Part shown: in pieces, positions 931 through 23,766 of the stretch | Layout of the letters: each line of letters starts with the position of its first letter | How positions within the stretch are numbered: position 1 is the stretch's first letter | DNA from: Niebla homalea | Taxonomy: Eukaryota > Ascomycota > Lecanoromycetes > Lecanorales > Ramalinaceae | Length of the DNA stretch: 64,000 nucleotides | Reading direction: 5' to 3' | Assembly: GCA_019925105.1 (NCBI GenBank) | Contig: JAHGAU010000015.1 | Span: 1 to 64,000, forward strand | Made by a program: the position numbers and the translations under genes | The notes under the pieces: model-generated | Seen by the model: only the letters and a program-made list of their open reading frames with translations | Database searches by the model: none | Told to the model about the DNA's origin: nothing

Positions 931-935
931 AAGTA

Positions 936-952
936 TTAGGGTTTAACCCTAA
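936..952. repeat. Head-to-head telomere-like motif
   Basis: The sequence TTAGGGTT-T-AACCCTAA has two 8-bp inverted arms around one base, each arm a bit more than one copy of the canonical fungal telomere repeat. It sits exactly at the end of the C-rich minisatellite. It is short enough to be chance in this composition. Confidence 0.4.
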
Positions 953-2377
953 TAACCCGTTTTTAAATTATTACTTTAATTTACGATTAAAATAAAAATA
1001 TATAATATGTATTATTACCAATAAAAAACCTATAAAAATAATATAAAAAATATAAGTTATCTTAAATTTTTTATTTAAATTAATTTATTAAATTATTCAC
1101 TTTATTTAAATTAATTTATTTATTTAATTCACTTCTTATTTTATTAATTTATTTATTTACTTTATTTAATTTATTTTATTTAATTTATTTATTTAACTTA
1201 TTTATTTAATTTATTTATTTAATTTATTTATTTAATTTATTTATTTATTTTATTTATTTTATTTATCTGCTTATTAAGCCGTTTACCACCCTTAAACCCT
1301 ACCGCTCGTTCATAGTTTATCTTTTATTAGCCAAAACCCCCTTGCGGCAGCGGTTTTCTCTATGATTAATAGTGCTTTACCCCCTTTTTTTATTTTAATA
1401 TAAAAACCCTTTATAATTAACTTTTACCCTGGATTATTTACCCTGTAAAAATGAATTAAGCTTAATACCCTTAATTCATTTAGGGTAATAATTAAACGGT
1501 GAATTCAGTAATACTTTATTATTTTATTATTTTATTATTTTATTATTTTATTATTTTATTATTTTATTATTTTATTATTTTATTATTTTATTATTTTATT
1601 ATTTTATTATTTTATTATTTTATTATTTTATTTTTTTATTTTTTATTATTTTATTACTTTATTAGTTTATTACTTTATTACTTTATTAATTTATTTATTT
1701 AATAATTAATTTATTTTTAGGGTTATTTTTTACTTTATTTATACTTTATTTATTACTTTATTTATTACTTTTTTATTACTTTTTTTTATAACTTTTTTAT
1801 TACTTTTTTATTAATTTATTTCTTAGTTTATTTCTTAATTCATTAATCTATTTATGTTTTAATTATTTTATTTGTTAATCCATTTTTTAATTATTTTATT
1901 TATTACTCTATTTCTTAATTAATTAATTTATATATTTCTTAAGTGATTTATATATTTATTTATTTCTTAATTAATTTTCTCATTTATTTATTTAATCATT
2001 TGTTTATTTTCTTATTTATTCATAAAGGGTATTTTCGTAATAAATCATTCATCCTTAGCCTTTTATAATAAGAGATTTTATTTAATTATATATTTATTTA
2101 CCTATTTATTAATTAATTTATTATTTATTTATCCGTTTTACAATTTACTTATTTTTTCCTTTACTTATTCCTTTCTTTATCCATCTATTTATTTATTTAT
2201 TGTATTTTACCCATTATTTATTTATCGTTATTTCCTTTTTTCCTTTTTTTTTATCTAGCTTTAAATTCCTTGTTTATTTATTTATTAATATTAACCCTTT
2301 TAATATAATTATTAATAAATAATAAAAGAACTTGTTTTTTCTTTTAATCTGAACTCGAATATTCTATTATAAAAATT
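953..2377. repeat. AT-rich low-complexity repeats
   Basis: No gene is visible. From about 1080 to 1265 the sequence cycles through TTTATTTAA/TTTATTTA. Positions 1506-1635 are an almost perfect 8-bp tandem repeat (TTATTATT); its open frame is merely the repeat read in threes. From 1700 to 2300 it is mostly TTTATT variants. About 1290-1440 is less simple (for example the stretch around 1340 with GCGGCAGCGG) but contains nothing recognisable. Confidence 0.75.
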
Positions 2378-5300
2378 TTTTTTAAAAAAGGTATAAGGCA
2401 AATATTTAAAAGCTTTTCTTAAAAAGATATTTATAAATTATCTATTTATTTATCTCCAAATTGAATTAAGGTGAAATTATACAATAATATCTCAATAAAC
2501 CCGTTAATCTCCGTATTTCTATAACTCCTTTTTGACCGTTTATAAGTCAAAATATCCTTTAACTCCACTTTATCCTTAATAAATGGGTATTGGATATTTT
2601 CCCAGTATTGTTTTATCGATAATTAAAAAATCGGCTGGTCCTTTATATAATAAAAATAGGTAAAAAGGGTTTCGAAGATTAGGCTTTATCGATATAAATA
2701 GGATTTTTTTCTAGTAGGTTTATAACCCTTATTTATAGGTAAAGGCTTAAACCGGGTATAAAAATCCTAAAGTAAAAGATATTTAAAATATCCTGAATAT
2801 TTATCCATATCCTAATAATGGAGTTTATTAATCCAAGTTCTTATAAAAGACGTATATCATAGATATTATAATTTTAACATTTATTAAAAAAGTATTATAA
2901 TAATACCGGTATATCCGAATTCATATATATTTTATAGTTAATATAGTTTTTAGATTAGTACTATAAAGTCAATTTTAAGTTATTTAGATTTATTTCGTTT
3001 TTCCGGTTTTCCAGTAAATATCGATCTTTTAATCCTAAATTATAAGATTCCTATAATTCAAAATCTGTAAAATCGATATTTATAGGTCCGGTAAGGTCCG
3101 TAAATAAATCCTTTTTGATTTCAGTATTAAGTTTTTCCTTTTAAATAAACCCAGAATAAAAATCATATTTTTCCTCGTTTTTCTTATATTTTTTCCGGTT
3201 TATAGAGCCGTCTATAATTAAGTCCAGTATAATCCGTTAACATTTATCGTTTTCAACGTAATCCTTTATATCCGGATCTTTAGGCTAAGATAACCGAGGG
3301 TTATAAAGGATTATAGCTTTACTTTTTTCCCTTTATCGGCCGGCTCGTTTACTTTCTTAACTATAAGCCTTTAAATCCCTTAATAAACCGACGTAAATAA
3401 TAACCCGTATATCCGGTAAATCCAGTCCTATAGATAAAGCCGAAGTAATCGTTAAAATAAGGGCTTTTTTATTACGGAAATTATCGAGTATTTAACGTTT
3501 TTAATTTATAGTCCCGATTTTTACGTGATATTTAAATATATCTAAGACTTCACTGACTTGATCCGTAAGGTAAATTGTCTTATAAAAGATAAGGATTTGG
3601 TTACTTAAATAAAGCCTTTTTTTTGAATTTATTAAAGGTAATAAACCATCCTTTAAATCATTTATTATAGCGTGTTCTTAAATTGAATATTAAATATTTG
3701 GTTTTATAGTCGGTTCCCGTAATAAAAGTATATTGGATATATTAATACCGGCTAACTAGAACCAGGTATTTTCATTTTTTAATAATAAGGAAGCCGTTAA
3801 ATAAACGAGTTACGTTTTATATTTAATTAAGGACTTTAATTCCTTAATTTTCGGCCGAAAATCCTTAATAATATCCAGTAAAATATAAGCTTTATTAATA
3901 ATAATACGGTCTAAACGGCCTTATCGTTTTAATCGATTTAAAAATTAATTAAAAAGTTCAGTAACGACTATTTCCGGGGTAACCAGTATAATATTAGCCT
4001 AATCTTTAAGGCTTTTTAAGGTCTACTCCAGATATTTAAGGCCTTAATTTTAAGTTTTAAGTAATATTTCCTCCCTTAAAGATATAAAGGGTAATATTAT
4101 TATGGTAAGTCTATTTGGGCCGGTAATAATAATAAAGACTATAAAAAAAGTACTTTTTCCGCGTTTAATACCAGATATAATAACGATTGGACTTTTTCCG
4201 GATAGAATTGCCGTTAATCCGGTTTTTTATAAACTTTGAAACTCTAGATTTTAACCGTATAATTGCTAAAAAACCGGTAAAATTCAAATAAATCGAAATC
4301 TCTAATATTTTTCTTTATAAATTTCCTTAATAAAATTTATAAATAATTTAGATTTTTAGTCCAATTTTTCCGGTATAAATAAAGTACTTAAGAATTAAAA
4401 GAATTAAAAAAGCCAGATAAATAAAGTTATAAATTTTTCCTGTTAAGTATATATTTAACCCGGTATTTCGTTTAATAACCGGGAGTATATATTATTAGTA
4501 ATATTATTAATATAAACGGCTTATAAATCGATAATTTCGTTTTTTTTTTATTATTATCGTTTGGATTAATAGCGTTTTCCCAGTCTTTATTAGTGAATTT
4601 ACCATAATAACGTTGAAAAATAGCAATAATAATATGCCGTTAAATTAAGGTTTTAATATTTACTTTTACCCGGGACCGGAACTCCTTAAATAAAGCCGTA
4701 TTAAAAGAATTAAACGTCCAGGTATTATAACGGTAAAGGATATTTTAAAATTCCTATTAATTTAAATCCTTTTTTTAAATTTCGTCCAAGTTACTATTAA
4801 TTACCGTTTAACGTTTCAATCGTTTTTATTGTTTTTTTGATTTTTCAGTTTTTTTAAGGTTTTTAATAGAGTAAATCCGTTTAGGTTAAAGGTAAAAGGT
4901 AATATTTAATTTTTTTAAATATAAATTCGATAAATTCGTTTTTAAAGGAATATAAAGTTAAAGGTAATAAATAAATAAAACCGATAATTTATAAGGTATA
5001 AACCGGTTTATAATCTTAATTAATCTAGTAATAATAAAGCCTTTATAATATAAAGTAATAAACATAAGTAGGCCGTTCTAAATAAAGATATTCCGTTTAA
5101 AATTTAATTAATTTTAATATTAAATTAATTGGATTTTAAGGCTTCGAGCTAAACCACCTTAAATAAGCTATAATAAAACTATTAGCTCTTCTTTAAATTT
5201 CCGGTTTTCTTTAAATAAATAGTAAACTTTATCTAGTTTCCAATGGATATCGTTATTTTTAAATTTAAGAAAACGGTTTTATAAGGTCGGTATTTAATGG

Positions 5301-7327
5301 ATTTTTTTATAAAGCTAAAAATCACCTTTAAAAGGTAATTTATTCCGTTTATCTATAAAGAAATTCCAGTCCGATATACTATTAATAATATTATCAGAAA
5401 AAGTAATAAAATCCACGGAGGGTAAATCGTTTTAACCGGTAAATAATAAATTATTAAATAATTGGAATTTAACGGTTTTTAGTAATCCAAATATTATAGA
5501 ACGGTATTAATTTATAGTTAATAAGAAATTTTTATAAAAAACCTCATTATTTTCCCAGGATATAGTACCTTCCTTAATAATATTATAATTAAGGGTAAAT
5601 CCATAAGTCCGTAATTTAAAAACGAAATTAATAAACCGTAATAAGGTATCGGTATTAGTAAGGAATAAGTGATTTTTCGTTAATTCAACAGTTTTACTAA
5701 ATAAGGTACTAATAAGTAAATCGGAATCCGAAATTAAAGGTAAATTTATCGATATATCTGAATTGATAATTTAATCCTTAAATTCCGGTAAACTGGGTTA
5801 AAGGGTATAAGCCCTTAAAAGGATAAGGGTTCGAAAAAAGGTAATAATATTACTTAATTTAGTGGTATAATTCGTAGGTGGGGACCAGGTAAAATCAGTG
5901 CTAATACCGTATATTATTAAGTTATTAAATAAAGGGCTTTAATAATCGTCTTCAGATAAATTTTAATGTAAAAAGCTTAAAAAAAAGCGTAATAATAAAT
6001 CCTTAAATTCATTTAAAGAATATAATAAATCCTTAAAATCATTATCGGATAAATTATTAACGAGTTCTTCATTAGATTCATTAAAAAAAAGTTATTAATA
6101 TATATATTTAAATAAAAGATAAAAGTAATAAAAGTAAAAATAAAAAAAAAGGGTAAAGTAAAATATAAAAAAGGTAAAAAAAAAAATAAAAAAGGGTAAA
6201 AATTATAAGTTAAAAAGTAAATATAAATAATAAATAATAAATAACAGGGAAAAAATAAAGATAACTTACTTTTCTGACTAATCTTTTATAAATCTTAATA
6301 CTTTAATAAATAAAGTAAGAGATAATTTGGTATATTTATACCTTAAACGGTTCCTTAGAGTAAATAACCTAATATTCTATAAATAAATGAATATATTAAG
6401 TTAAACCTCGGTATAAGAGTAGATCGTATTTAGACCGATATATATTATAAACGGTTTTTTATTTATAACGTTATCAGTTTCTTTGTAATTTATATATTCC
6501 AATAAATTCCGGCTTACGGTACTTGGCTTATTAATTAAAACCGCTTTTTTAAATAAAGCCTTAATCGATTTTATTATTAAATATAATGATAAAATCGATA
6601 ATTACTCTGGATCGTTCGATTTTAAAGTCGGTTTTACCGGGGGTTTTAACTAAGACCGGGCTATAATTGGATTGAAATTAAATAAATGGGTAGCTTACCC
6701 GGTACGGGCTACCCAGGCATTAGCCTCGAATTTTTCCGGTTCCGTAATCGTTATATTCGTGTTTTCGGTAACCGTTTTAATTCGTTCCGTTAATTTCTTT
6801 ATTCTAACAATATAAATAAGGGCCGGTATATCCAATAGGTCTATAATATTATCGTTATTTTTAATATTAAATACTTTAAATAAATAACGATTCGATTTTT
6901 GGGTATATAATTATTAGAATTTAACAGATATTTATTTATTATTCGATTTTAATTGGTTTTTTCGATGAAAATTACCTTATTTTTGGGCTTAATAAATATC
7001 CGGGTGATCGTTCCGTTGGTATATCGTTATCGTATTCGGGGATAAGTAAATATAAGTGTAATAAATACACTTTAAACCCGAAGAAACGGGTAATAAAGGT
7101 AAAGGGGTAACCGGTCCGTCCGGAATATCGATATTATCTGAGTAAAACTTAGTAATATAAGTAAAAATCTTATTCCGGGTAGTAGGGGCAAGGTAAGGAT
7201 GTTGTTTATCCAGGTGGCCGCGTAATTCCTGGAACCGGACGCCGTATTTATAATTACGGCATATTAAAGTTTTATAATCAGATAAATAAAGGAAGGCCTT
7301 TTCGGTAAGGGCTTAAGGTGAATCCAT
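2378..7327 (-). pseudogene. RIP-inactivated telomere-linked RecQ-type helicase, copy 1
   Basis: Minus-strand remnant of a superfamily-2 RecQ-like helicase. Reading in frame through stops, I see a Walker A (G-I-K-R-G-K-S-T, 4149-4172), then L-V-T-P-E; a DEAH-box position now reading N-K-A-Y (3885-3896); a motif III remnant Y-L-T-A-S; a motif V (T-S-A-L-S-I-G-L-D-L-P-D-I-R-V, about 3400-3450); and a motif VI ending E-S-K-R-A-G-R (3336-3359). The N-terminus starts at ATG 7327-7325 with M-D-S-P-stop and contains L-I-C-R and F-Q-E-L-R-G-H-L (about 7200-7250), the signature of the fungal OrsD-like/DUF3505 C2H2-type domain. Stops are TAA/TAG where Gln or Trp codons are expected, and Cys, Asp and Gly codons are changed by G-to-A or C-to-T, as RIP does. 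The least mutated of three copies. Family role (known): subtelomeric helicases of unclear function. The 3' limit is uncertain. Confidence 0.85.
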
Positions 7328-8585
7328 TATATAAATGGATATAAATAATATATAAATAAAAGGTGAAGGTAAAGGTAGGTAAAGGTAAAGGTAGGTAAAG
7401 GTAAAGGTAAAGGTAAAGGTAAAGGTGAATAAAGGTAAAGGTAAATAAAGGTAAAAGTAAATAAAGGTAAAGGTAGGTAAAGGTAAAAATGAAGGTAAAG
7501 ATAAAGGTAAAGGTAAGGTAAAGGTATAAGTAATAGTAAAGGGTAAAGGGTAAAGGGTAAAGGGTATTTGGTTTACTTGGGTATTAAGTAGATTAAGTGA
7601 CTTGAGTGTGATGAGAAAAACAGAAATTTGAAGGGGGGGAAGGGTAATTATATAGATAAATTATTAGCCAAGCCTTTACCAAGAGAATTATAAGTTATAA
7701 GGCTTAAATAAGGCCGAGACCGGGCTTAGATAGTTAAGTTACTTAATAATTTAAAAATAAATAGGCCGGTTCCGGATTAATAATTATTGGTGGTAATAGT
7801 GTAATAATTTAGGTAACAGTATAATAATTTAAAAATAAAGATCTATTTATAGATTATTCTCGTATTCAGACGGATATTACGGCCGGATCTTAAAGCCTTA
7901 ATATAGGGAGGCGACGTTAGCCGTTACCCTATATTAAGAAATATTAAAACCCTTATATTATTAATAAAATAATAAAAGTATTATATAAGTTTTTTTTTAT
8001 TATTATTAAGTAATATAATCTTAAATAAAATACGGATCTAAGTTTTCCCGTTACCGTTATAAAGCGCTTTTTTTAAGCTATTTTTTAAATTAAATAGATT
8101 AAATAAAGGATCAATAATAATCCGGATATACCTTAAAATCTTAAAGAATTACTTATAAATTTTTATAAATTAATATTACCGTAACCGTTAATAAACGGAT
8201 TTTCATTTTCCTAATATTATTAAAGAGCGGAAAAACGTATAAAGAAAATTAAATTATTAAATTTTACCGGGGAATAACCGATAAAAAAGTAATAATTAAC
8301 GCCAGGAAGTAAACTTAAACCTTATAACCCGGAATTTATAAATATTTAAAAATCGATAAATAAATAATTACTATTTAAATAAACCTCGGAGGTCTCGGGA
8401 TTAATAAACCGTACTAAAATTTATACCTTTTATATAGAGAGTAAATAAATCCGGGCCGGTTTTACCCTAGAAAGAATCATTTTTAAAAATAACTCTTTCT
8501 TAAATTAAGTCCGAGAAGGCCGAATTAACGCCGAGTAAGTAAATAACTCTTTTTAGGCAGGAAAGAGTAAGAACTAAATAATAAA
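7311..8585. repeat. TLH upstream segment, tail A of unit 1
   Basis: A 1.27-kb segment directly upstream of the helicase start. It opens with the first six codons of the gene and continues with a GGTAAA/GGTAGG minisatellite (about 7360-7530) and four copies of GGGTAAA (about 7537-7566). Next come an AT-rich middle with repeated AATAATTTAAAAATAAA and an end with an inverted repeat (8465-8503). It is repeated as tail B and in the other units. Possibly the promoter/5' region of the helicase; no ORF. Confidence 0.8.
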
Positions 8586-9860
8586 GCTTAAGGTGAATCT
8601 ATTATATAAATGGATATAAATAATATATAAATAAAAGGTGAAGGTAAAGGTAGGTAAAAATAAAGGTAGGTAAAGATAAAGGTAAAGGTAAAGGTAAAGG
8701 TGAATAAAGGTAAAGGTAAATAAAGGTAAAAATAAATAAAGGTAAAGGTAGGTAAAGGTAAAGGTGAAGGTAAAGATAAAGGTAAAGGTAAGGTAAAGGT
8801 ATAAGTAATAATAAAGGGTAAAGGGTAAAGGGTAAAGGGTATTTAATTTACTTAAGTATTAAGTAGATTAAGTAATTTAAGTATAATAAGAAAAACAGAA
8901 ATTTAAAGGGGGGGAAGGGTGATTATATAGATAAATTATTAGCCAAGCTTTTACCAAGAGAATTATAAGTTATAAGGCTTAAATAAGGTTAAGACCGGGT
9001 TTAAATAGCTAAATTACTTAATAATTTAAAAATAAATAAGCCGGTTCCGGACTAATAATTATTAATGGTAATAGTATAATAATTTAAATAACAATATAAT
9101 AATTTAAAAATAAAAATTTATTTATGGATTATTCTCGTATTTAAACGGATATTACGGCCGGATCTTAAAGCCTTAATATAGGGAAATAACGTTAACCGTT
9201 ACTTTATATTAAGAAATATTAAGACCCTTATATTATTAATAAAATAATAAAAATATTATATAAGTTTTTTTTTTATTATTATTAAGTAATATAATCTTAA
9301 ATAAAGTACGGATTTAAGTTCTTCCGTTATTATTATAAAGCGCTTTTTTTTTAAGTTATCTTTTAAATTAAATAGATTAAATAAAGGATTAATAATAATC
9401 CGGATATACCTTAAAACCTTAAAGAATTACTTATAAACCCTTATAGGTTAATATTATTATAACCGTTAATAAATAGATTTTTATTTTTTTAATATTATTA
9501 AAGAGCGGGGAAACATATAAAAAAAATTAAATTATTAGATTTTACCGGGGAATAACCGATAAAAAAATAATAATTAACGCCGGGAAATAAACTTAAATTT
9601 TATAACCCGGAATTTATAAATATTTAAAAATCGATAAATAAATAATTATTATTTAGATAAATTTTAAAAGTTTTAGGATTAATAAGCCGTATTAAAATTT
9701 ATATTTTTTATATAAAAAATAAATAAATCCGGGCCGGTTCTACCTTAGAAAGAGTTATTTTTAAAAATAACTCTTTCTTAAATTAAATTTAAGAAGGCCG
9801 AATTAACGCTAAATAAGTAAATAACTCTTTTTAAATAAGAAAAAATAAGAATTAAGTAAT
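8586..9860. repeat. TLH upstream segment, tail B of unit 1
   Basis: Direct repeat of the preceding 1.27 kb, beginning with the same GCTTAAGGTGAATC block (the mutated start-codon end of the helicase) and carrying the same minisatellite, GGGTAAA block and terminal inverted repeat, with more A/T substitutions. It joins the next helicase body at about 9861 within a T-run/A-run. Confidence 0.8.
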
Positions 9861-12800
9861 AGGTTTTTTTTAAAAAAAATATAAAGCAAATATTTAAAAG
9901 CTTTTCTTAAAAAGATATTTATAAATTATTTATTTATTTATCTTTAAATTAAATTAAGGTAAAATTATATAATAATATCTTAATAAACCCGTTAATCTTT
10001 ATATTTTTATAATTCCTTTTTAATTATTTATAAGTCAAAATATCCTTTAATTTTACTTTATCCTTAATAAATAAATATTAAATATTTTCTTAATATTATT
10101 TTATTAATAATTAAAAAATCGGTTAATTTTTTATATAATAAAAATAGGTAAAAAAAGTTTTAAAAATTAAGCTTTATTAATATAAATAGGATTTTTTTTT
10201 AGTAAATTTATAATTTTTATTTATAAATAAAGGCTTAAATTAAGTATAAAAATCCTAAAATAAAAGATATTTAAAATATTTTAAGTATTTATTTATATCT
10301 TAATAATAGAGTTTATTAATTTAAGTCCTTATAAAAAGACGTATATCGTAGATATTATAATTTTAATATTTATTAAAAGAATATTATAATAATATTAATA
10401 TATTTAAATTTATATATATTTTATAATTAATATAGTTTTTAAATTAATATTATAAAGTTAATTTTAAGTTATTTAAATTTATTTTATTTTTCCGGTTTTT
10501 TAATAAATATCGATTTTTTAATCTTAAATTATAAGATTCTTATAATTTAAAATTTATAAAATTAATATTTATAAATTTAATAAGGTCCGTAAATAAATCC
10601 TTTTTAATTTTAATATTAAGTTTTTCCTTTTAAATAAACTTAAAGTAAAAATTATATTTTTCTTTATTTTTTTTATATTTTTTCCGGTTTATAAAGCCGT
10701 TTATAATTAAGTTTAATATAATCCGTTAATATTTATCGTTTTTAACGTAATCTTTTATATCCGGATCTTTAGGCCGAAATAATTAAGGGCTATAAAGGAT
10801 TATAACTTTACTTTTTTCCTCTTATCGGCCGGTTTATTTACTTTCTTAATTATAAGCCTTTAAATCCCTTAATAAATTAATATAAATAATAACCCGTATA
10901 TCCGGTAAATCCAGTCTTATAGATAAAGCCGAAGTAATTATTAAAATAAAGGCTTTTTTATTACGGAAATTATTAAGTATTTAACGTTTTTAATTTATAG
11001 TCCCGATTTTTATATAATATTTAAGTATATCCAAAACTTTATTAATTTAATCTATAAGGTAAATTGTTTTATAAAAGATAAGGATTTAATTACTTAAATA
11101 AAGCCTTTTTTTTAAATTTATTAAAAATAATAAATTATCCTTTAAATTATTTACTATAATATATTCTTAAATTAAATATCGAATATTTAATTTTATAATT
11201 AATTCTTATAATAAAAGTATATTAAATATATTAATACCGGTTAATTGGAACCAGGTATTCTTATTTTTTAATAATAAAAAAGCCGTTAAATAAATGAATT
11301 ATGTTTTATATTTAATTAAAAACTTTAATTCCTTAATTTTCAGCCGAAAATCCTTAATAATATTTAATAAAATATAAGCTTTATTAATAATAATACGGTT
11401 TAAACGGCCTTATCGTTTTAATCGATTTAAAAACTAATTAAAAGGTTTAATAATAGCTATTTCCGGGGTAATTAATATAATATTAACTTAATCTTTAAGG
11501 CTTTTTAAGGTTTACTCTAAATATTTAAGGCCTTAATTTTAAGCTTTAAATAATATTTCTTCCTTTAAAGATATAAAGGGTAATATTATTATAATAAGTT
11601 TATTTAAGCCGGTAATAACGGTAAAGACTATAAAAAAAGTATTTTTTCCGCGTTTAATATTAGATATAATAACGATTAAACTTTTTCCGGATAGAATTAT
11701 TGTTAATCCGGTTTTTTATAAACCCTGAAACTCCAGATTTTAACCGTATAATTATTAAAAAGCCGGTAAAATTCAAATAAATTAAAATCTTTAATATTTT
11801 TCTTTATAAATTTCTTTAATAAAATTTATAAATAACTTAGATTTTTAATCCAATTTTTCCGGTATAAATAAAGTATTTAAAAATTAAAGGAATTAAAAAA
11901 GCCAGATAAATAAAGTTATAAATTTTTCCCGTTAAATATATATTTAACCCGGTATTTTATTTAATAACCGGGAATATATATTATTAATAATATTATTAAT
12001 ATAAATGGCTTATAAATTAATAATTTCATTTTTTTTATTGTTATTATTTAAATTAATAGCGTTTTTTTAATCTTTATTAATGAATTTACCGTAATAATAT
12101 TAAAAAATAATAATAATAATATGTTATTAAACTAAGGTTTTAATATTTACTTTTACTTAAAACCGGAACTCCTTAAATAAAGTTATATTAAAAGAATTGG
12201 ACGTTTAGGTATTATAACGGTAAAAAATATCTTAAAATTCTTATTAATTTAAATCCTTTTTTAAATTTCATTTAAATTATTATTAATTACCGTTTAACGT
12301 CTTAATTATTTTTATTATTTTTTTAATTTTTTAGTTTTTTTAAGGTTTTTAATAGAGTAAATCCGTTTAAATTAAAGGTAAAAAGTAATATTTAGTTTTT
12401 CCAAATATAAATTCAATAAATTTATTTTTAAAGGAATATAAAATTAAAGGTAATAAATAAATAAAATTAATAATTTATAAAATATAAACCGGTTTATAAC
12501 CTTAATTAATTTAATAATAATAAAGCCTTTATAATATAAAATAATAAATATAAATAAGCCGTTTTAAATAAAAATATTCCGTTTAAAATTTAATTAATTT
12601 TAATATTAAATTAATTAAATTTTAAGGCTTTAAGCTAGATTATTTTAAGTAAATTATAATAAAACCATTAATTCTTCTTTAAATTTCCGGTTTTCTTTAA
12701 ATAAATAATAAACTTTATCCAATTTCTAATAAGTATCGTTATTTTTAAATTTAAGAAAACGATTTTATAAAATCGGTATTTAATAAATTTTTTTATAGAA

Positions 12801-14813
12801 TTAAAAATCATTTTTAAAAGGTAATTTATTCTATTTATCTATAAAGAAATTTTAGTCCGGTATATTATTAATAATATTATTAAAAAAAGTAATAAAATCT
12901 ACGGAGGGTAAATTATTTTAACCGGTAAATAATAAATTATTAAATAACCGGGATTTAACGGTTTTTAGTAATTTAAATATTACGGAACGGTATTAATTTA
13001 TAATTAATAAAAGATTTTTATAAAAAATTTTATTATTTTCTTAAAATATAATACCTTCCTTAATAATATTATAATTAAGGGTAAATTTATAAATCCGTAA
13101 TTTAAAAATGAAGTTAATAGGCCGTAATAAGGTATCGGTATTAATAAGGAATAAATGATTTTTTATTAATTTAATAATTTTACTAAATAAGGTATTAATA
13201 AATAAATCGGAATCTGAAATTAAAAATAAATTTATTAATATATTTAAGTTAATAATTTAATCCTTAAATTCCGGTAAACTAGGTTAAAGGGTATAAGCCC
13301 TTAAAAGGATAAAGGCTTAAAAAAGGTAATAATATTACTTAATTTAATAATATAATTCATAGGTAAGGACCAAGTAAAATCGGTGTTAATATTATATATT
13401 ATTAAGTTATTAAGTAAAAAACTTTAATAATTGTCCTTAAATAAATCCTAGTATAAAAAGCTTAAAAAAAAAGCGTAATAATAAATCCTTAAATTTATTT
13501 AAAGAATATAATAAATCCTTAAAATTATTATTAAATAAATTATTAATAAGTTCTTTATTAAATTTATTAAAAAAAAGGTTATTAATATATATATTTAAAT
13601 AAAAAATAAAAGTAATAAAAATAAAGGTAAAAAAAAAAGGGTAAAGTAAAATATAAAAAAAATAAAAAAAAAATTAAAAAAATAAAAATTATAAGTTAAA
13701 AAGTAAATATAAATAATAAATAATAAATAATAAAGAAAAAATAAAGATAATTTACTTTTCTGATTAATCTTTTATAAATCTTAATACTTTAATAAATAAA
13801 GTAAGAAATAATTTAATATATTTATACTTTAAACGGTTCTTTAAAGTAAATAATTTAATATTTTATAAATAAATAAATATATTAAGTTAAACCTTAATAT
13901 AAAAGTAAATTATATTTAAACCGATATATATTATAAACGGTTTTTCGTTTATAACGTTACCGGTTTCTTTACGGTTTATATATTCTAGTGAATTCCGGCT
14001 TATAATATTTAACTTATTAATTAAAACCGCTTTTTTAAATAAAGCCTTAATTAATTTTATTATTAAATATAATAATAAAATCAATAATTACTCTAGATCG
14101 TTTAATTTTAAAGTCGGTTTTACTGGGGGTTTTAATTAAGATCAGGTTATAACTAAATTGAAATTAAATAAATAAGTAGCTTACCCGGTACGGGTTACTT
14201 AGGTATTAACCTCGAATTTTTCCGGTTCCGTAATCGTTATATTCGTATTTTTAATAACCGTTTTAATTTATTCTGTTAATTTCTTTATTCTAATAATATA
14301 AATAAAAGCCGGTATATCTGATAGATTTATAATATTATTATTATTTTTAATATTAAATACTTTAAATAAATAACGATTTAATCCTTAGGTATATAATTAT
14401 TAAAATTTAATAAATATTTATTTATTATTCGATTTTAATTGGTTTTTTCAATAAAAATTACTTTATTTTTAAACTTAATAAATATCCGGGTAATTATTCC
14501 GTTAATATATTATTATCGTATTTAAGGATAAGTAAATATAAATGCAATAAATATACTTTAAATCTAAAGAAACGGATAATAAAGGTAAAAAGGTAACCGG
14601 TCCGTCCGGAATATCGATATTATTTAAATAAAATTCAGTAATATAAGTAAAAATCTTATTCCGGGTAATAAAGGTAAAGTAAGGGTATTATTTATTTAAA
14701 TAACCACGTAATTCTTGGAATTGGACGCCGTATTTATAATTACGGTATATTAAAGCCTTATAATTAAATAAATAAAAAAAGGCCTTTTCAGTAAAAGCTT
14801 AAGGTAAATCTAT
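9861..14813 (-). pseudogene. RIP-inactivated telomere-linked RecQ-type helicase, copy 2
   Basis: Collinear with copy 1 over its full length but with many more C:G-to-T:A changes. The start codon is lost (ATG to ATA at 14811-14813). The Walker A serine codon has become Asn (G-K-N-T, about 11639-11665). The DEAH-box position reads N-K-A-Y (11374-11385). Motif VI is at about 10826-10850. A 65-codon open stretch at 13887-14084 is an accidental stop-free part of the same frame, not a separate gene. Confidence 0.85.
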
Positions 14814-16068
14814 TATATAAATAGATATAAATAATATATAAATAAAAGGTGAAAATAAAAGTAAATAAAGGTAAAGGTAAATAAAGGTAAAGGTAAAGGT
14901 AAAAATAAAGGTAAATAAAGGTAAAGGTAAATAAAGGTAAAAGTAAATAAAGGTAAAGGTAGATAAAGGTAAAAATAAAGGTAAAGATAAAGGTAAAGGT
15001 AAAGTAAAGGTATAAGTGATAGTAAAGGGTAAAGGGTAAAGGGTAAAGGGTATTTAGTTTGCTTAAGTATTAAGTAGATTAAGTAACTTAAGTATAATAA
15101 GAAAAATAGAAATTTAAAGGGGGAAGGGTGATTATATAAATAAATTATTAATTAAGCTTTTATTAAAAGAATTATAAATTATAAAGCTTAAATAAAACTA
15201 AGATTAAGTTTAAATAATTAAGTTATTTAATAATTTAAAAATAAATAAATTAATTCCGGATTAATAATTATTAATAATAATAATATAATAATTTGGGTAA
15301 TAATATAATAATTTAAAAATAAAAATCTATTTATAAATTATTTTTATATTTAAACGGATATTACGGCCGGATCTTAAAGTTTTAATATAAGAAAACGACG
15401 TTAACCGTTACTTTATATTAAGAAATATTAAGACCTTTATATTATTAATAAAATAATAAAAATATTATATAAGTTTTTTTATTATTATTAAGTAATATAA
15501 TTTTAAATAAAATAAAGATTTAAGTTCTCCCGTTATTATTATAAAGTGCTTTTTTTAAGTTATTTTTTAGATTAAATAAATTAAATAAAGGATTAATAAT
15601 AATCTAAATATACCTTAAAACCTTAAAGAATTACTTATAAACCCTTATAAGTTAATATTACCGTAACTATTAATAAACGGATTTTCATTTTTCCGATATT
15701 ATTAAAGAACGGAAAAACGTATAAAGAAAGTTAAATTATTAAATTTTATTAAGGAATAACCGATAAAAAAGTAATAATTAACGCCGGGAAGTAAACTTAA
15801 ACCCTATAACCCGGAATTCATAAATATTTAAAAATTAATAAATAAATAATTATTATTCGGATAAACCTTAGAGGTCTCAGGATTAATAAGCCGTATTAAA
15901 ATCTATACCTTTTATATAAAGAATAAATAAATCCGGGCCGGTTTTACCCTAGAAAGAGTTATTTTTAAAAATAACTCTTTCCTAGGTTAAATCCGAGAAG
16001 GCCGAATTAATGCCGAGTAAGTAAATAACTCTTTTTAGGCAGGAAAGAGTAAGAACTAGGTAATAAAG
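14801..16068. repeat. TLH upstream segment, tail A of unit 2
   Basis: Same 1.27-kb upstream segment: GGTAAA minisatellite at about 14850-15010, the GGGTAAA block at about 15025-15052, and the terminal AAAGAGT inverted repeat at about 15950-15985. Collinear with the tails of unit 1. Confidence 0.8.
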
Positions 16069-17338
16069 CTTAAGGTGAATCCATTATATAAATGGATATA
16101 AATAATATATAAATAAAAAATAAAGGTAAAGGTAAATAAAAGTAAAGGTAAATAAAGGTAAAGGTAAAGGTAAAGGTAAAGGTAAATAAAGGTAAAGGTA
16201 AATAAAAGTAAAAGTAAATAAAGGTAAAGGTAGGTAAAAGTAAAGGTAAAGGTAAAGATAAAGGTAAAGGTAAGGTAAAGGTATAAGTGATAGTAAAGGG
16301 TAAAGGGTAAAGGGTAAAGGGTATTTGGTTTACTTAAGTATTAAGTAGATTAAATAACTTAAGTATAATAAGAAAAACAGAAATTTAAAGGGGGGGAAGG
16401 GTGATTATATAGATAAATTATTAATCAAACCTTTACCAAGAGAATTATAAGTTATAAGGCTTAAATAAGGCCGAGACCGGGCTTAAATAACTAAGTTATT
16501 TAATAATTTAAAAATAAATAAACCGGTTCCGGATTAATAATTATTAATAGTAATAATGTAATAATTTGGGTAACAATATAATAATTTAAAAATAAAGATC
16601 TATTTATAGATTATTCTCGTATTTAAACGGATATTACGGCCGGATCTTAAAGCCTTAATATAAAGAGGTAACGTTAACCGTTACCTTATATTAAGAAATA
16701 TTAAGACCTTTATATTATTAATAAAATAATAAAAGTATTATATAAGTTTTTTTTTATTATTATTAAATAATATAATCTTAAATAAGGTACGGATTTAAGT
16801 TCTTTTATTACCGTTATAAAACGCTTTTTTTAAGTTATCTTTTAGATTAAATAGATTAAATAAAGGATTAATAATAATCCGGATATACCTTAAAACCTTA
16901 AAAAATTACTTATAAACCCTTATAGGTTAATATTACCGTAACCGTTAATAAACGGATTTTTATTTTCCCGATACTATTAAAAAGCGGAAAAACATATAAA
17001 GAAAGTTAAATTACCAGATTTTACCGGGGAATAACCGATAAAAAAGTAATAATTAACGCCGGGAAGTAAACTTAAACTTTATAACCCGGAATTCATAAAT
17101 ATTTAAAAATCAATAAATAAATAATTATTACTCGGACGAACCTTAAAGGTTTCGGGATTAATAGGTTATATTAAAATTTATACCTTTTATATAGAAAGTA
17201 AATAAATCCGGGCCGGTTTTACCCTAGAAAGAGTTATTTCTAAAAATAACTCTTTCTTAGGTTAAGTTTAAGAAAGCCGAATTAACGTTAAATAAGTAAA
17301 TAACTCTTTTTAAGCAGGAAAGAATAAGAATTAAATAA
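16069..17338. repeat. TLH upstream segment, tail B of unit 2
   Basis: Direct repeat of tail A, starting at the second GCTTAAGGTGAATCCAT block of this unit. Here the duplicated helicase start codon is still ATG (16080-16085 region), although the frame leaves the gene after six codons. It ends at the junction with helicase copy 3. Confidence 0.8.
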
Positions 17339-20300
17339 TAGGTTTTTTTTTTAAAAAAATATAAAGTAAATATTTAAAAGCTTTTCTTAAAAAGATATTT
17401 ATAAATTATTTATTTATTTATCTTTAAATTAAATTAAGGTAAAATTATATAATAATATCTTAATAAACTTATTAATCTCTGTATTTCTATAATTCCTTTT
17501 TAACTATTTATAAGTTAAAATATCCTTTAACTTTACTTTATCCTTAATAAATAAATATTAAATATTTTCTTAATATTATTTTATTAATAATTAAAAAATC
17601 GGCTAATTTTTTATATAATAAAAATAAATAAAAAAAGTTTTAAAAACCAGGCTTTATCGATATAAATAGGATTTTTTTCTAGTAAGTTTATAATTTTTAT
17701 TTATAAATAAAAGCTTAAACCGGATATAAAAATCCTAAAATAAAAGATATTTAAAATATTTTAAGTATTTATTTATATTTTAATAATAAAGTTTATTAAT
17801 TTAAGTCTTTATAAAAAGACGTATATCGTAAATATTATAATTTTAATATTTATTAAAAGAATATTATAATAATACCGGTATATTTAAATTTATATATATT
17901 TTATAATTAATATAGTTTTTAAATTAATACTATAAAGTCGATTTTAAGTTATTTAAATTTATTTTATTTTTCCGGTTTTTTAATAAATATCGATCTTTTA
18001 ATCTTAAATTATAAGATTCCTATAATTTAAAATTTATAAAATTAATATTTATAAGTTTAATAAAGTCCGTAAATAAATCCTTTTTAATTTTAATATTAAG
18101 TTTTTCCTTTTAAATAAACTTAAAATAAAAATTATATTTTTTCCTTATTTTTCTTATATTTTTTCCGGTTTATAAAGTTATTTATAATTAAGTTTAATAT
18201 AATCCGTTAATATTTATCGTTTTTAACGTAATCTTTTATATCTAAATCTTTAAACCGAAATAATTAAGGGTTATAAAGGATTATAGCTTTACTTTTTTTC
18301 CTTTTATCGGCCGGTTTATTTACTTTCTTAATTATAAGCCTTTAAATCCCTTAATAAACCGACATAAATAATAACCCGTATATTTAATAAATCCAGTTTT
18401 ATAGATAAAGCCGAAGTAATCATTAAAATAAAGGCTTTTTTATTACGGAAATTATTAAGTATTTAACGTTTTTAATTTATAGTCCCGATTTTTATATAAT
18501 ATTTAAGTATATCCAAGACTTTATTAATTTAATTTATAAGGTAAATTATTTTATAAAAGATAAGGATTTAATTACTTAAATAAAGCCTTTTTTTTTTAAA
18601 TTTATTAAAAATAATAAATTATCCTTTAAATTATTTACTATAATATATTCTTAAATTAAATATCGAATATTTAACCTTATAATTAGTTCTTATAATAAAA
18701 GTATATTAAATATATTAATACCGGTTAATTGGAACTAGGTATTCTTATTTTTTAATAATAAAAAAGCCATTAAATAAATAAATTATATTTTATATTTAAT
18801 TAAGGACTTTAATTCCTTAATTTTCGGCCGAAAATCCTTAATAGTATTTAATAAAATATAAGTTTTATTAATAATAATATAGTTTAAATAGCCTTATCGT
18901 TTTAATCGATTTAAAAATTAATTAAAAGGTTTAATAATAATTATTTCTGGGGTAATTAATATAATATTAGCTTAATCTTTAAGGCTTTTTAAGGTTTAAT
19001 CTAGATATTTAAGGCCTTAATTTTAAACTTTAAATAATATTTTTTCTTTTAAAGATATAAAGGGTAATATTATTATAATAAGTTTATTTAAGCCGGTAAT
19101 AACGGTAAAAACTATAAAAAAAGTACTTTTTCCGTATTTAATATTAAATATAATAATAATTAAACTTTTTCCGGATAGAATTACTATTAATCCGGTTTTT
19201 TATAAACCCTAAAACTTTAGATTTTAACCGTATAATTATTAAAAGGCCGGTAAAATTTAAATAAATTAAAATCTTTAATATTTTTCTTTATAAATTTTTT
19301 AATAGAATTTATAAATAACTTAAATTTTTAATCTAATTTTTCCGGTATAAGTAAAGTATTTAAGAATTAAAAGAATTAAAAAAGCTAGATAAATAAAGTT
19401 ATAAATTTTTCCCGTTAAATATATATTTAACCCGGTATTTCGTTTAATAACCGGAAATATATATTATTAATAATATTATTAATATAAGTAATTTATAAAT
19501 TAATAATTTTATCTTTTTTATCGTTATTATTTAAATTAATAACGTTTTCTTAATCTTTATTAATAAATTTACCGTAATAATATTAAAAAATAATAATAAT
19601 AATATACCGTTAAATTAAGGTTTTAATATTTACTTTTACTTAAGATTGGAACTCCTTGGATAAAGTTATATTAAAAGAATTGGACGTTTAGGTATTATAA
19701 CGGTAAAAAATATCTTAAAATTCTTATTAATTTAAATCCTTTTTTTAAATTTCATTTAAATTACTATTAATTACCGTTTAACGTCTTAATTGTTTTTATT
19801 ATTTTTTTAATTTTTCAGTTTTTTAAGGTTTTTAATAGAGTAAATCCGTTTAAATTAAAGGTAAAAGGTAATATTTAGTTTTTCTAAATATAAATTCGAT
19901 AAATTTATTTTTAAAGGAATATAAAATTAAAGTTAATAAATAAATAAAATTAATAATTTATAAGGTATAAACCGGTTTATAACCTTAATCGATTTAATAA
20001 TAATAAAGCCTTTATAATATAAAATAATAAATATAAATAAGCCGTTTTAAATAAAGATATTCCGTTTAGAATTTAATTAATTTTAATATTAAATTAATTA
20101 AATTTTAAGGCTTCGAGCTGGATTATTTTAGATAAGTTATAATAAAATTATTAATTCTTCTTTAAATTTCCGGTTTTCTTTAAATAAATAATAAACTTTA
20201 TCCAATTTCTAATAAGTATCGTTATTTTTAAATTTAAGAAAACGGTTTTATAAAGTCGGTATTTAATGGATTTTTTTATAGAGTTAAAAATCATTTTTAA

Positions 20301-22299
20301 AAAATAATTTATTCCGTTCGTCTATAAAGAAATTCCAGTCCGGTATATTATTAATAATATTATTAAAAAAAGTAATAAAATCTACGGAGGGTAAATTATT
20401 TTAACCGGTAAATAATAAATTATTAAATAATCGGGATTTAACGGTTTTTAATAATCTAAATATTACGGAACGGTATTAATTTATAATTAATAAAAGATTT
20501 TTATAAAAAACCTTATTATTTTCTTAAAATATAATACTTTCCTTAATAATATTATAATTAAGGGTAAATCTATAAATCCGTAATTTAAAAATGAAGTTAA
20601 TAGGCCGTAATAAGGTATTAATACCAATAAGGAATAAATGATTTTTTATTAATTTAATAATTTTATTAAATAAAGTATTAATAAATAAATCGGAATCCGA
20701 AATTAAAAATGAATTTATTAATATATTTAAGTTAATAATTTAATCCTTAAATTCCGGTAAACTGGGTTAAAGGGTATAAGCCCTTAAAAGGATAAAGGCT
20801 TAAAAAAGGTAATAATATTACTTAATTTAATAATATAATTCATAGGTAAAAACCAAGTAAAATCGGTGTTAATATTATGTATTATTAAGCTATTAAGTAA
20901 AAGACTTTAATAATTATCCTTAAATAAATCCTGGTATAAAAAGCTTAAAAAAAAAGCGTAATAATAAATCCTTAAATTTATTTAAAGAATATAATAAATC
21001 CTTAAAATTATTATTAAATAAATTATTAATAAGTTCTTTATTAAATTTATTAAAAAAAAAAGGTTATTAATATATATATTTAAATAAAAAATAAAAGTAA
21101 TAAAAATAAAAATAAAAAAAAAAAAGGGTAAAGTAAAATATAAAAAAAATAAAAAAAAAAAAAAAAAAAGTAAAAATTATAAGTTAAAAAGTAAATATAA
21201 ATAATAAATAATAAATAACAAAGAAAAAATAAAGATAATTTACTTTTTTAATTAATCTTTTATAAATCTTAATACTTTAATAAATAAAGTAAAAAATAAT
21301 TTAATATATTTATACTTTAAACGGTTCTTTAAAGTAAATAATTTAATATTCTATAAATAAATAAATATATTAAGTTAAACCTCGATATAAAAGTAGATTA
21401 TATTTAAATTAATATATATTATAAACGGTTTTCGTTTATAACGTTACCGGTTTCTTTACGGTTTATATATTCTAGTGAATTCCGGCTTACGGTATTTAAC
21501 TTATTAATTAAAACCGCTTTTTTAAATAAAGCCTTAATTAATTTTATTATTAAATATAATAATAAAATCGATAATTACTCTGGATTATTTGATTTTAAAG
21601 TCGGTTTTACCGGGGTTTTAATTAAGATCGGGCTATAATTAAATCGAAATTAAATAAATAAATAGCTTACCCGGTACGGGTTACCTAAGTATTAACCTCG
21701 AATTTTTCTAGTTCCGTAATTATTATATTTATGTTTTTAATAATTGTTTTAATTTATTCCGTTAATTTCTTTATTCTAATAATATAGATAAAAGCCGGTA
21801 TATCCGATAGATTTATAATATTATTATTATTTTTAATATTAAATACTTTAAATAAATAACGATTTAATCCTCGGGTATATAACTATTAGAATTTAATAGA
21901 TATTTATTTATTATTCGATTTTAATTGGTTTTTTCAATAAAAATTACTTTATTTTTAAACTTAATAAATATCCGGGTAATTATTCCGTTAATATATTATT
22001 ATCGTATTCAAGGATAAGTAAATATAAATATAATAAATATACTTTAAATCCGAAGAAACGGGTAATAAAGGTAAAAAGGTAACCAGTCCGTCCGGAATAT
22101 CGATATTATTTAAGTAAAACTCAGTAATATAAGTAAAAATCTTATTCCGGGTAATAGGGGTAAGGTAAGGGTATTATTTATCCAGGTAACCGCGTAATTC
22201 CTGGAACTGGACGCCGTATTTATAATTACGGCATATTAAAGCCTTATAATTAAATAAATAAAAAAAGGCCTTTTCGGTAAGGGCTTAAGGTGAATCTAT
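17339..22299 (-). pseudogene. RIP-inactivated telomere-linked RecQ-type helicase, copy 3
   Basis: Collinear with copies 1 and 2. The start codon is mutated to ATA (22297-22299). Walker A keeps G-K-S-T but the preceding Arg has become Tyr (about 19122-19150). Motif VI sits near 18308-18335. Some bases mutated in copy 2 are intact here and vice versa, so the two were mutated at least partly independently after the array had formed. Confidence 0.85.
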
Positions 22300-23560
22300 T
22301 ATATAAATGGATATAAATAATATATAAATAAAAGGTGAAAATAAAAGTAAATAAAGGTAAAGGTAGGTAAAGGTAAAGGTAAAGGTAAAAATAAAGGTAA
22401 ATAAAGGTAAAGGTAAATAAAGGTAAAAGTAAATAAAAGGTAAAGGTAGGTAAAGGTAAAAGTAAAGGTAAAGATAAAGGTAAAGGTAAGGTAAAGGTAT
22501 AAGTGATAGTAAAAGGTAAAGGGTAAAGGGTAAAGGGTATTTGGTTTGCTTAAGTATTAAATAGATTAAGTAACTTAAGTATAATAAGAAAAACAGAAAT
22601 TTAAAGGGGGGGAAGGGTAATTATATAAATAAATTATTAATTAAGCTTTTATTAAGAGAATTATAAATTATAAAGCTTAAATAAAACCAAGATTAAGTTT
22701 AAATAATTAAGTTATTTAATAATTTAAAAATAAATAAACTAATTCCGGATTAATAATTATTAATAGTAATAATATAATAATTTGGGTAATAATATAATAA
22801 TTTAAAAATAAAAATCTATTTATAGATTATTTTTATATTTAAACGGATATTACGGCCGGATCTTAAAGTTTTAATATAGGAAAACGACGTTAACCGTTAC
22901 CCTATATTAAGAAATATTAAGACCTTTATATTATTAATAAAATAATAAAAATATTATATAAGTTTTTTTTTTATTATTATTAAGTAATATAATTTTAAAT
23001 AAAATAGGGATTTAAGTTCTCCTATTATTATTATAAAGCGCTTTTTTTAAGTTATTTTTAGATTAAATAAATTAAATAAAGGATTAATAATAATCTAAAT
23101 ATACCTTAAAACCTTAAAGAATTATTTATAAACCCTTATAGGTTAATATTACCGTAATTATTAATAAACGGATTTTTATTTTTCCGATATTATTAAAGAA
23201 CGGAAAAACGTATAAAGAAAGTTAAATTATTAAATTTTACCGGGGAATAACCGATAAAAAAATAATAATTAACGCCGGGAAGTAAACTTAAACCCTATAA
23301 CCCGGAATTTATAAATATTTAAAAATTAATAAATAAATAATTATTACTCGGATGAACCTCGGAGGTCTCGGGATTAATAAGCCGTACTAAAATCTATACC
23401 TTTTATATAAAGAGTGAATAAATCCGGGCCGGTTCTACCCTGGAAAGAGTCATTTCTAAAAATGACTCTTTCCTGGGTTAAGTCCGAGAAGGCCGAATTA
23501 ACGCCGAGTGAGCAAATGACTCTTTCCAGGCAGGAAAGAGTGAGAACTAGGTGATAAGCT
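22284..23560. repeat. TLH upstream segment, tail A of unit 3 (tail B absent)
   Basis: Third-unit copy of the upstream segment. Its last 220 bases (about 23340-23560) are nearly free of RIP: GC-rich blocks such as CCGGGCCGG and a 40-bp inverted repeat (23438-23477) survive. The expected tail B does not follow; after GAACTAGGTGATAAGCTTA the sequence runs into the target site of an LTR retrotransposon. Confidence 0.8.
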
Positions 23561-23571
23561 TAGTATAAAAT

Positions 23572-23766
23572 TGTTAGGGAATTATCACTGACCTGCAGCT
23601 ACGTGCATGCGGCTCTAGGCCTTGGCACTTCGCTTATTCTAGACATTTTACCTTATTAAATAAAGCGTCCTATATATTCTTATAATATCTGTAATCCCTT
23701 TATATGCTATATCTATATAGTTAAAATTTACTTATATTTAAAACCACCTTACTTAAGCCTTTAATA
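23572..23766 (+). repeat. 5' LTR (195 bp)
   Basis: Begins TGTTAGGG and ends CCTTTAATA; the matching 3' LTR ends CCCCTGACA, so the original ends were the inverted TGTCAGGG/CCCTGACA type. It contains the shared block CCTTGGCACTTCGCTTATTC. Differences from the 3' LTR are almost all transitions, as RIP produces. Confidence 0.9.

What the first reader, a model, noticed from the sequence alone, without database searches (positions are those of the whole stretch)
2378..23560. Three tandem RIP-killed telomere-linked helicase genes
Seen: three collinear minus-strand RecQ-type helicase remnants with Walker A, DEAH-box, and motif V/VI positions in the expected order, in 7.5-kb units. Known: telomere-linked helicases sit next to fungal telomeres and RecQ-like helicases recur there. 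Inference: this window is subtelomeric, and the array was formed by tandem duplication and then destroyed by RIP, which itself targets duplications. The three copies allow ancestral comparison.
Basis: partly seen in the sequence, partly recalled or inferred. Interest (0 to 1): 0.8.

Follow-up and report, generated by a model that had tools for sequence, protein, structure and literature searches.

The report
RIP-killed telomere helicase layers, lichen fungus
The end of this fungal chromosome is built from stacked, mutation-destroyed copies of a helicase gene that also sits at many other chromosome ends of the same genome; the gene type is already known, but the way the layers join and the sharp edge of the mutation damage are informative.

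Summary
Window 2376-23557 carries three collinear minus-strand copies of a broken OrsD-RecQ helicase gene (RecQ-family E 1.9e-18 for unit 1; 4.4e-31 for a milder copy on contig C22). The window starts a contig, about 0.5 kb from a telomere by homology; long copies sit at 18 other contig ends. The damage is RIP: unit 1 and the C40 copy differ by 481 transitions and 0 transversions, CpA first.

Units 2 and 3 are tandem sisters that share RIP mutations beyond expectation, so RIP began before they separated (or they were homogenised later). Unit 1 groups with other chromosome ends. A fourth, older layer, split by an LTR retrotransposon, runs inward to 30837.

Two points are less expected. (1) The layers whose inner end I could read begin at a shared hairpin-plus-AACTAGRTGRTAG terminus, joined to at least 23 different flanks, often through 2-4 shared bases. 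(2) RIP falls off over the last 150-200 bp before that terminus where homology ends, but runs through it where the junction itself is repeated.

Known kind (telomere-linked helicase), new member, probably a lichen-forming Lecanoromycete. The terminal-addition mechanism is inferred.

The parts
1..2375 (.). Telomere-adjacent block (tel): degenerate CCCTTATAA minisatellite, then T/A-rich low-complexity DNA; contig start
   Evidence: C22:519-1500 aligns to window 1-969 at 98%, and C22 begins with about 95 bp of CCCTAA repeats
2376..7310 (-). Unit 1 OrsD-RecQ helicase pseudogene (body1), least RIPed of the three (GC 0.256)
7004..7297 (-). OrsD domain PF12013 of unit 1
   Evidence: E 9.5e-9; found again in the own-genome scan
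3330..4175 (-). RecQ core of unit 1: motifs I 4143-4175, Ia 4068-4103, II 3873-3905, III 3780-3809, V 3405-3452, VI 3330-3362
   Evidence: recQ_fam E 1.9e-18; positions by alignment
3156..3242 (-). Cysteine motif resembling the RecQ zinc module; legible in the C22 copy, mutated here
   Evidence: the zinc-module name is recalled
7311..8585 (.). R1, 1.27-kb upstream repeat (no Pfam domain found in the C22 copy of R)
8586..9863 (.). R2, second R; sister of R4
9864..14796 (-). Unit 2 helicase pseudogene (body2), GC 0.165
   Evidence: Helicase_C at 10825-11094 E 1.4e-4
14797..16067 (.). R3; sister of R5 (the two share one transversion not seen in 15 other R copies)
16068..17341 (.). R4; sister of R2
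17345..22282 (-). Unit 3 helicase pseudogene (body3), GC 0.171; sister of body2. No Helicase_C hit at E<=0.001 on its own; assigned by alignment
22283..23557 (.). R5; its terminus is the inner end of the three-copy array
23500..23557 (+). Fixed inner terminus: hairpin GACTCTTTCC-AGGCA-GGAAAGAGT, then GAGAACTAGGTGATA; almost un-RIPed
23558..23571 (.). 14-bp fragment of the older (R'-type) layer, with left target duplication AAAAT
23572..30152 (+). RIPed LTR retrotransposon (LTRs about 23572-23766 and 29958-30152), inserted in the older layer; probably Ty3-type
   Evidence: 83.5% terminal direct repeats; RNase H domains E 5.2e-14 and 5.4e-11; AAAAT on both sides, empty site in other R' copies. 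Ty3 is inferred from a weak SH3_Tf2-1 hit (E 0.005, below its cut-off)
30153..30837 (.). Remnant of the older R'-type layer ending in AACTAGATGATAG; gene-rich DNA begins next to it

Best explanation
This is a chromosome end made of successive layers of a telomere-linked OrsD-RecQ helicase block in a RIP-proficient, probably lichen-forming fungus. Each block runs from a fixed inner terminus (hairpin plus AACTAGRTGRTAG), through a 1.27-kb upstream region R and the helicase gene pointing at the telomere, to an AT-rich tel segment and the telomere. Shown: the family, its place at chromosome ends, its destruction by RIP, the shared terminus with different flanks, the order of layers, and the closer relation of units 2 and 3. 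Inferred: when a chromosome end erodes into an older block, a new block is joined to it, starting at the fixed terminus and using a few shared bases; later exchange between ends by homology refreshes outer units (unit 1), and unequal crossing-over duplicates inner ones (units 2 and 3). RIP then mutates the copies in sexual cycles, so the outer, younger layer is milder and the inner ones worse. In this window the block can make no protein; its present role is at most a spare, recombining buffer between telomere and genes.
For: RecQ/OrsD identity. Position: the 20 long DNA copies all lie within 22 kb of a contig end, on 18 ends; six of seven contig ends with TTAGGG arrays carry family pieces within 10 kb. 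RIP: 470:0, 481:0 and 386:0 transitions to transversions between unit 1 and the C22, C40 and C4 copies; relative to C22, unit 1 has CpA converted 191/292 against 84/504 CpC, 60/420 CpG, 95/433 CpT. Terminus: 32 and 27 matches of two RIP-degenerate patterns, reversed controls 0 and 0, 23 distinct flanks among the held loci. Eroded inner layers: the terminus joins inner body at 899 (C4), 1074 (C19) and 4341 (C22), inner tel at about 1312 (C9) and 939 (C37, 34 bp only); C8's right end is a telomere joined to R at position 98. Sisters.
Against: Terminal addition was never observed, only read from junctions; ectopic recombination could have carried existing junctions to more ends. One of eight readable joins (C4) lacks AG in the target, and two more joins could not be read. 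Not all copies sit at ends: a group with two helicase and two OrsD hits and one terminus lies inside C11, beside an internal telomere tract. Transversions do not separate the units: units 2 and 3 differ by 5, unit 1 from them by 3 and 4. The two indels shared by units 2 and 3 alone are in poly-A runs, so the sister claim rests mainly on shared RIP sites and one R transversion; R1 and R2 also share some (4 vs 1.2 expected). Telomere repeats are not on this contig. No intact source gene was found, but one stop-free Helicase_C hit near a contig start (C31:17022) could not be typed.
Confidence: 0.7

Rival explanations
1. Plain tandem duplication of one telomere-linked helicase unit into three, then RIP of all three together.
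For: Regular 7.49-kb period and the same R|R and R|body junctions in two places each. RIP runs through these repeated junctions, so part of the RIP followed duplication. R1 and R2 share 4 two-copy sites against 1.2 expected.
Against: Units 2 and 3 share RIP mutations far beyond expectation; unit 1 hardly does with either. Unit 1 is much less RIPed (GC 0.256 vs 0.165 and 0.171) and is 0-1 transversions from the copies on C22, C40, C4 and C9, against 3-4 from units 2 and 3.
Confidence: 0.15
2. Only homologous break-induced replication between chromosome ends (Y'-like): the block spreads passively and the fixed terminus is where homology happened to end in a few founder events.
For: Unit 1 and tel are close to C22 and C9 (tel 97-98%); C40 and C7 share flanks at 98% and C9 at 87%.
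Against: 23 distinct flanks behind the same terminus, and two subfamilies (R and R') with unlike upstream DNA but the same 13-bp end, need many joins at one point; readable joins share only 2-5 bases with the target, which is short for ordinary homologous exchange.
Confidence: 0.3
3. A classical transposon: R as LTRs of an R-body-R element, or a Helitron.
For: R-body-R occurs twice; the terminus has a hairpin followed by CTAG, like the recalled Helitron 3' end. Similar Colletotrichum elements were filed under the code DHX (PMC5576322), which I recall as the Helitron code.
Against: No reverse transcriptase, integrase, Rep/HUH or transposase domain in the minus-strand body frames or in the six R frames scanned; plus-strand body frames were not scanned. 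Most single copies have R on one side only. CTAG is followed by 7 further conserved bases, and flanks do not begin with a fixed base.
Confidence: 0.07
4. Assembly artefact, or ordinary AT-rich decay instead of RIP.
For: The reads were not available here; the internal telomere tract on C11 shows that a misjoin somewhere in this assembly is possible.
Against: Each unit has its own mutation pattern; the change is almost purely C-to-T with CpA preference and falls off at homology edges.
Confidence: 0.04

Closest known systems
Subtelomeric helicase + DUF3505 elements of Colletotrichum higginsianum (DHX_G198, DHX-chim_G203, DTX-chim_G199; PMC5576322: section 27 and passages seen)
   Same: RecQ-like helicase with DUF3505 (recalled as the older name of OrsD), single copies at subtelomeres, same orientation to the telomere, between telomere and unique DNA
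   Different: There single full-length copies of 11.3-18.5 kb with telomere motifs inside; here RIP-destroyed, layered and tandem, with no two TTAGGG units in a row anywhere in the window
Telomere-linked helicases (TLH) of Fusarium oxysporum, Magnaporthe oryzae, Ustilago maydis (PMC12857005 and PMC8381367: passages seen; the original TLH papers are recalled or seen only as references)
   Same: Helicase gene next to many telomeres, full and truncated copies
   Different: Table 4 of PMC12857005 lists many full TLH regions with ORFs of about 3.5 kb; here the helicase halves that I read (C22, C40 and the three window units) all carry stops
Low-GC subtelomeric RecQ family of Mycosphaerella graminicola (PMC4522978: passages seen)
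   Same: RecQ genes tied to telomeres, 13 copies (7 full, 6 truncated), very low GC
   Different: 34.7% GC with a 3.2-kb open frame; here 16-26% GC in the window and no open frame
Yeast Y' elements (recalled; mentioned in the PMC4522978 passages)
   Same: Helicase-bearing terminal repeats that spread between ends and form tandem arrays
   Different: Y' is bordered by telomere tracts (recalled); here the inner border is a fixed hairpin sequence, and RIP is added
Drosophila HeT-A telomere arrays (recalled)
   Same: Layered addition to eroded ends with a fixed inner end and truncated older layers
   Different: No reverse transcriptase or other retroelement gene found in the block; the gene points away from the fixed end

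Membership tests
Telomere-linked helicase (TLH) | RecQ-type helicase gene | tested here: met
   TIGR00614 E 1.9e-18 (66.5 bits, window) and 4.4e-31 (108.2 bits, C22), both below the curated cut-off of 219.8 bits; best PDB match 7a8r 'ATP-dependent DNA helicase' E 1.3e-21, next 'helicase Q1' E 2.3e-20
Telomere-linked helicase (TLH) | Lies next to the telomere | tested here: met
   Contig start; the homologous block on C22 is capped by telomere repeats. Not seen on this contig itself
Telomere-linked helicase (TLH) | Multicopy, at many chromosome ends | tested here: met
   18 other contig ends with long copies (20 of 231 candidates scored), further ends by domain hits
Telomere-linked helicase (TLH) | Functional gene product | tested here: not met
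   64-91 stops per window copy in the RecQ half; these are pseudogene members
OrsD-RecQ fungal helicase family | N-terminal OrsD with C-terminal DEAD + Helicase_C | tested here: met
   (DEAD found in C22 and C40, not in the window copy); homologues P0004-P0008, P0010, P0013 carry all three Pfam families
RIP | C-to-T transitions with CpA preference in repeats, unique DNA spared | tested here: met
   the neighbouring gene-rich DNA has GC about 0.5 and mostly negative composite RIP index
RIP | RID/DIM-2 methyltransferase genes present | tested here: inconclusive
   Two DNA-methylase genes, on C1 and C17; not typed as RID or DIM-2
Helitron | Rep/HUH + helicase protein | tested here: not met
   No such domain in the minus-strand body frames or the six R frames
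Helitron | 3' hairpin with CTRR as last bases, A|T insertion (recalled) | tested here: not met
   Hairpin and CTAG present, but 7 more conserved bases follow and flanks vary in the first base
LTR retrotransposon (R as LTR) | LTRs on both sides and retroelement proteins | tested here: not met
   R on one side only in most single copies; no such domains in body or R

The most novel reading that the evidence does not exclude
The TLH block is a telomere-terminal mobile element in its own right: a hairpin plus AACTAGRTGRTAG forms a dedicated end that is joined to eroded chromosome termini with a few bases of homology, possibly from an RNA or DNA copy, so that chromosomes are extended by whole helicase blocks in a HeT-A-like way without an encoded reverse transcriptase; the OrsD domain may recognise this end.
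Probability: 0.22. Interest if true: 0.8.

Novelty: new member of a known kind. Interest (0 to 1): 0.5.

Why it matters
Helicase genes recur at fungal telomeres and, as far as I recall, their role there is not settled. Here one genome holds more than twenty copies whose history can be read. RIP marks give relative ages, and a fixed inner terminus with many different flanks suggests how such blocks reach new ends. The same 1.27-kb sequence lies both at a homology edge and inside a repeated junction, which gives a natural measure of how close to the edge RIP works (about 150-200 bp). I saw no paper reporting TLH in lichen fungi among the listings; that says nothing beyond those searches of open-licence papers.

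Tried and rejected
R as LTR and the Helitron reading: tested by Pfam on the frames named above and by flanks, rejected. A transversion-only tree of the copies: too few characters. Typing the species: only the class is supported (Psora testacea 62%, Bacidia gigantensis 59%, both Lecanorales; three unnamed proteins at 84-85%). Looking for an intact source gene: of 108 Helicase_C hits, 27 carry TAA stops; I take 26 of them as this family by position (not typed by sequence), 24 near contig ends and two inside C11; the 27th is C24:382582. A stop-free Helicase_C hit, C31:17022-17345 (open frame 507 aa), lies 17 kb from a contig start and is untyped: the own-genome protein search meant to type it did not complete. 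OrsD is stop-free on C40, in the window's unit 1 and in an internal place on C5, but the C40 and unit 1 copies have stops in their helicase halves. No structure was predicted. The C28 and R5 joins could not be read clearly and were left out of the count of eight. The edge test used 13 edge copies and 4 internal ones; C50, C1 and the outer C9 copy were not included.
Full report
WHAT THE WINDOW IS. The window is bases 1-64000 of contig C15 of a 50.57-Mb, 52-contig fungal assembly. A K+/H+ antiporter at 54776-56869 is closest, among named proteins, to Psora testacea (62%) and Bacidia gigantensis (59%), both Lecanoromycetes, Lecanorales; three unnamed proteins are 84-85% identical. So it is most likely a lichen-forming fungus; the genus was not determined.

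THE OBSERVATION. Three collinear units are there. Parts: tel 1-2375; body1 2376-7310; R1, R2; body2 9864-14796; R3, R4; body3 17345-22282; R5 to 23557. The body is one gene: OrsD (PF12013) at the start, then DEAD and Helicase_C (DEAD is recognised in the C22 and C40 copies, not in the window copy). In the milder copy on C22 recQ_fam scores E 4.4e-31, and the solved structures matched best are RecQ-family DNA helicases (7a8r E 1.3e-21, then helicase Q1 E 2.3e-20). Homologues with OrsD, DEAD and Helicase_C exist as single proteins of 1530-1738 residues (seven of the first ten hits). A frame change and about 200 extra bases between the OrsD and RecQ halves suggest an intron or an old insertion. 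R lies upstream of the gene; its C22 copy has no Pfam domain in six frames.

POSITION. Of 231 first-look candidates only 20 were scored; they gave 83 matches on 16 contigs, and the 20 long ones lie within 22 kb of a contig end, on 18 ends besides this one. The 211 unscored candidates could lie elsewhere. C22 starts with about 95 bp and C50 with about 85 bp of CCCTAA repeats; the block begins at C22:2903 and C50:2191. C22:519-1500 is 98% identical to window 1-969, so window base 1 is about 0.5 kb from a telomere by homology. Seven contigs have TTAGGG arrays at a known or apparent end (C1, C8, C20, C22, C27, C32, C50); six of them have a family piece (helicase hit or terminus) within 10 kb, and C27 showed none. 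In the Helicase_C scan (108 hits) 26 stop-bearing hits fit this family by position: 24 near contig ends, two inside C11.

RIP. Between unit 1 and the copies on C22, C40 and C4 there are 470, 481 and 386 transitions and no transversion; against C9 426 and 1. With C22 as yardstick (itself 12% converted at such sites), unit 1 has 191 of 292 CpA converted, against 84/504 CpC, 60/420 CpG and 95/433 CpT. Two DNA-methylase genes are present, the number I would expect for RID plus DIM-2, but they were not typed.

HISTORY OF THE THREE UNITS. Given site susceptibility, body2 and body3 share 881 conversions against 743 expected (z 19.5, the highest of all pairs of 23 copies, next 8.4; 17.4 when strand and 500-bp region are also held). 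Sites converted in exactly two copies: of 162 in the body, body2-body3 have 15 (2.3 expected); of 59 in R, R2-R4 have 9 (2.7) and R3-R5 6 (0.1). R3 and R5 share one transversion not seen in the other 15 R copies. Body2 and body3 also share two one-base indels, but in poly-A runs. So the duplicated unit is R-body-R, and it was already RIPed when duplicated, or was homogenised later. Unit 1 is not their sister: z 2.0 and 1.0 (2.5 and 1.2 in the stricter test) with a background median of 1.7, and 5.2 (5.6) with C9. Against this: R1 and R2 share 4 two-copy sites (1.2 expected), and transversions alone do not separate the units (5 between units 2 and 3, 3 and 4 to unit 1).

THE FIXED TERMINUS. The R copies that I could read to their inner end finish with a hairpin and GAGAACTAGGTGATAG (C50 has CACTAG in place of AACTAG); the second subfamily (R') ends in AAAACTAGATGGTAG. 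The hairpin folds better than shuffles in three R-type examples (z -2.7 to -3.0) and in one of two R' examples (z -2.4; the other -1.05). Degenerate patterns for the two ends match 32 and 27 places, with 0 in each reversed control. Of the 32, 30 are within 27 kb of a contig end, one is inside C11 next to the internal telomere tract, and one (C25) is on a contig of unknown length. Of the 27, 26 are within 31 kb and one (C3:2095790) is on a contig of unknown length (lengths). Among the held loci 23 distinct flanks follow the terminus, counting the related C40, C7 and C9 flanks as one. Where the flank is an older block, that block is usually truncated: body at 899 (C4), 1074 (C19), 4341 (C22, 78% identity); tel at about 1312 (C9) and 939 (C37, 34 bp only). 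In the window itself the terminus meets the very start of body and of R. On C8's right end telomere repeats are joined to R at position 98. Of eight joins whose intact target is readable, seven have AG in the target at the join, shared with the terminus (binomial 7e-7 for AG frequency 0.10; joins may not be independent, and one of them is blurred by RIP); the C4 join shares GG only.

A FOURTH LAYER. R5 abuts 14 bp of an older R'-type layer, then an LTR retrotransposon with RNase H domains (23572-30152, target duplication AAAAT), then the rest of R' to 30837, where gene-rich DNA begins. The empty site is visible in R' copies on C19, C8, C28 and C30.

RIP AT THE EDGE. In 13 R copies whose terminus borders unlike DNA, conversion in the last 25 bp is 1 of 130 sites, 47 of 767 at 26-150 bp, and 490 of 1430 at 601-900 bp. 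In the four window copies whose terminus lies inside a repeated junction (R1-R4) it is 19 of 40 in the last 25 bp. The ratio of terminal to inner conversion is higher in all 4 internal than in all 13 edge copies (exact p 0.0004, copies not independent; closest pair 0.54 vs 0.50, the latter resting on 7 inner conversions). R5, in the same array, has 3 of 69 in its last 150 bp and 120 of 240 at 201-900 bp. So the repeated junctions existed before part of the RIP. [quoted passage not shown]

MECHANISM. Shown: the layers, their order, the shared end, the shared and unshared RIP marks. Inferred: addition of a new block at eroded ends, from the fixed end outward. An RNA- or DNA-templated route, or end-joining of a cut block, would all fit; I cannot separate them.

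CHANGES AFTER CHECKING. C11 turned out to be 1,626,075 bases long, so its copies are internal; a stop-free helicase at C31 is now reported; the shared indels are downgraded.

LITERATURE. Seen as passages or sections: PMC5576322, PMC4522978, PMC12857005, PMC8381367, PMC4858203, PMC12542154 (a strongly RIPed lichen genome; its main text has no occurrence of 'helicase'). Other TLH papers are recalled or seen only in listings and reference lists.

Noticed in passing
G000:C11:957494-958571 (L055, L056), contig length 1626075: Head-to-head telomere tracts (4 TTAGGG, then about 1 kb, then 5 CCCTAA) deep inside a contig, with helicase or OrsD hits on both sides (951971 +, 965319 -, 968988 -, 972099 -): a telomere fusion fossil or a misjoin.
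   Followed up: partly
window 38001-40000 and 62001-64000: Two more AT-rich stretches (GC 0.26 and 0.22) with RIP-like dinucleotides inside and after the gene-rich part.
   Followed up: no
window 32096-36259: An esterase-like (DUF676) frame followed by a TPR frame, the first long frames inward of the telomere blocks; the pair resembles a fungal NLR-type protein (the NLR label is by eye).
   Followed up: partly
G000:C8 right end (L043): Telomere repeats joined directly to R at position 98: a chromosome apparently healed inside the block.
   Followed up: partly
R1|R2, R3|R4 and R5|R' joins in the window: All three join at the same short string GCTTA, in R and in the unlike R' sequence; chance or target preference.
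   Followed up: no
window 7313-7660, 14813-15151, 22285-22620: A pyrimidine-rich minisatellite at the start of three R copies gives open, low-complexity frames of 111-115 residues.
   Followed up: no
G000:C31:17022-17345: A stop-free Helicase_C hit (open frame 507 aa) 17 kb from a contig start; not typed because the search machine did not answer.
   Followed up: no
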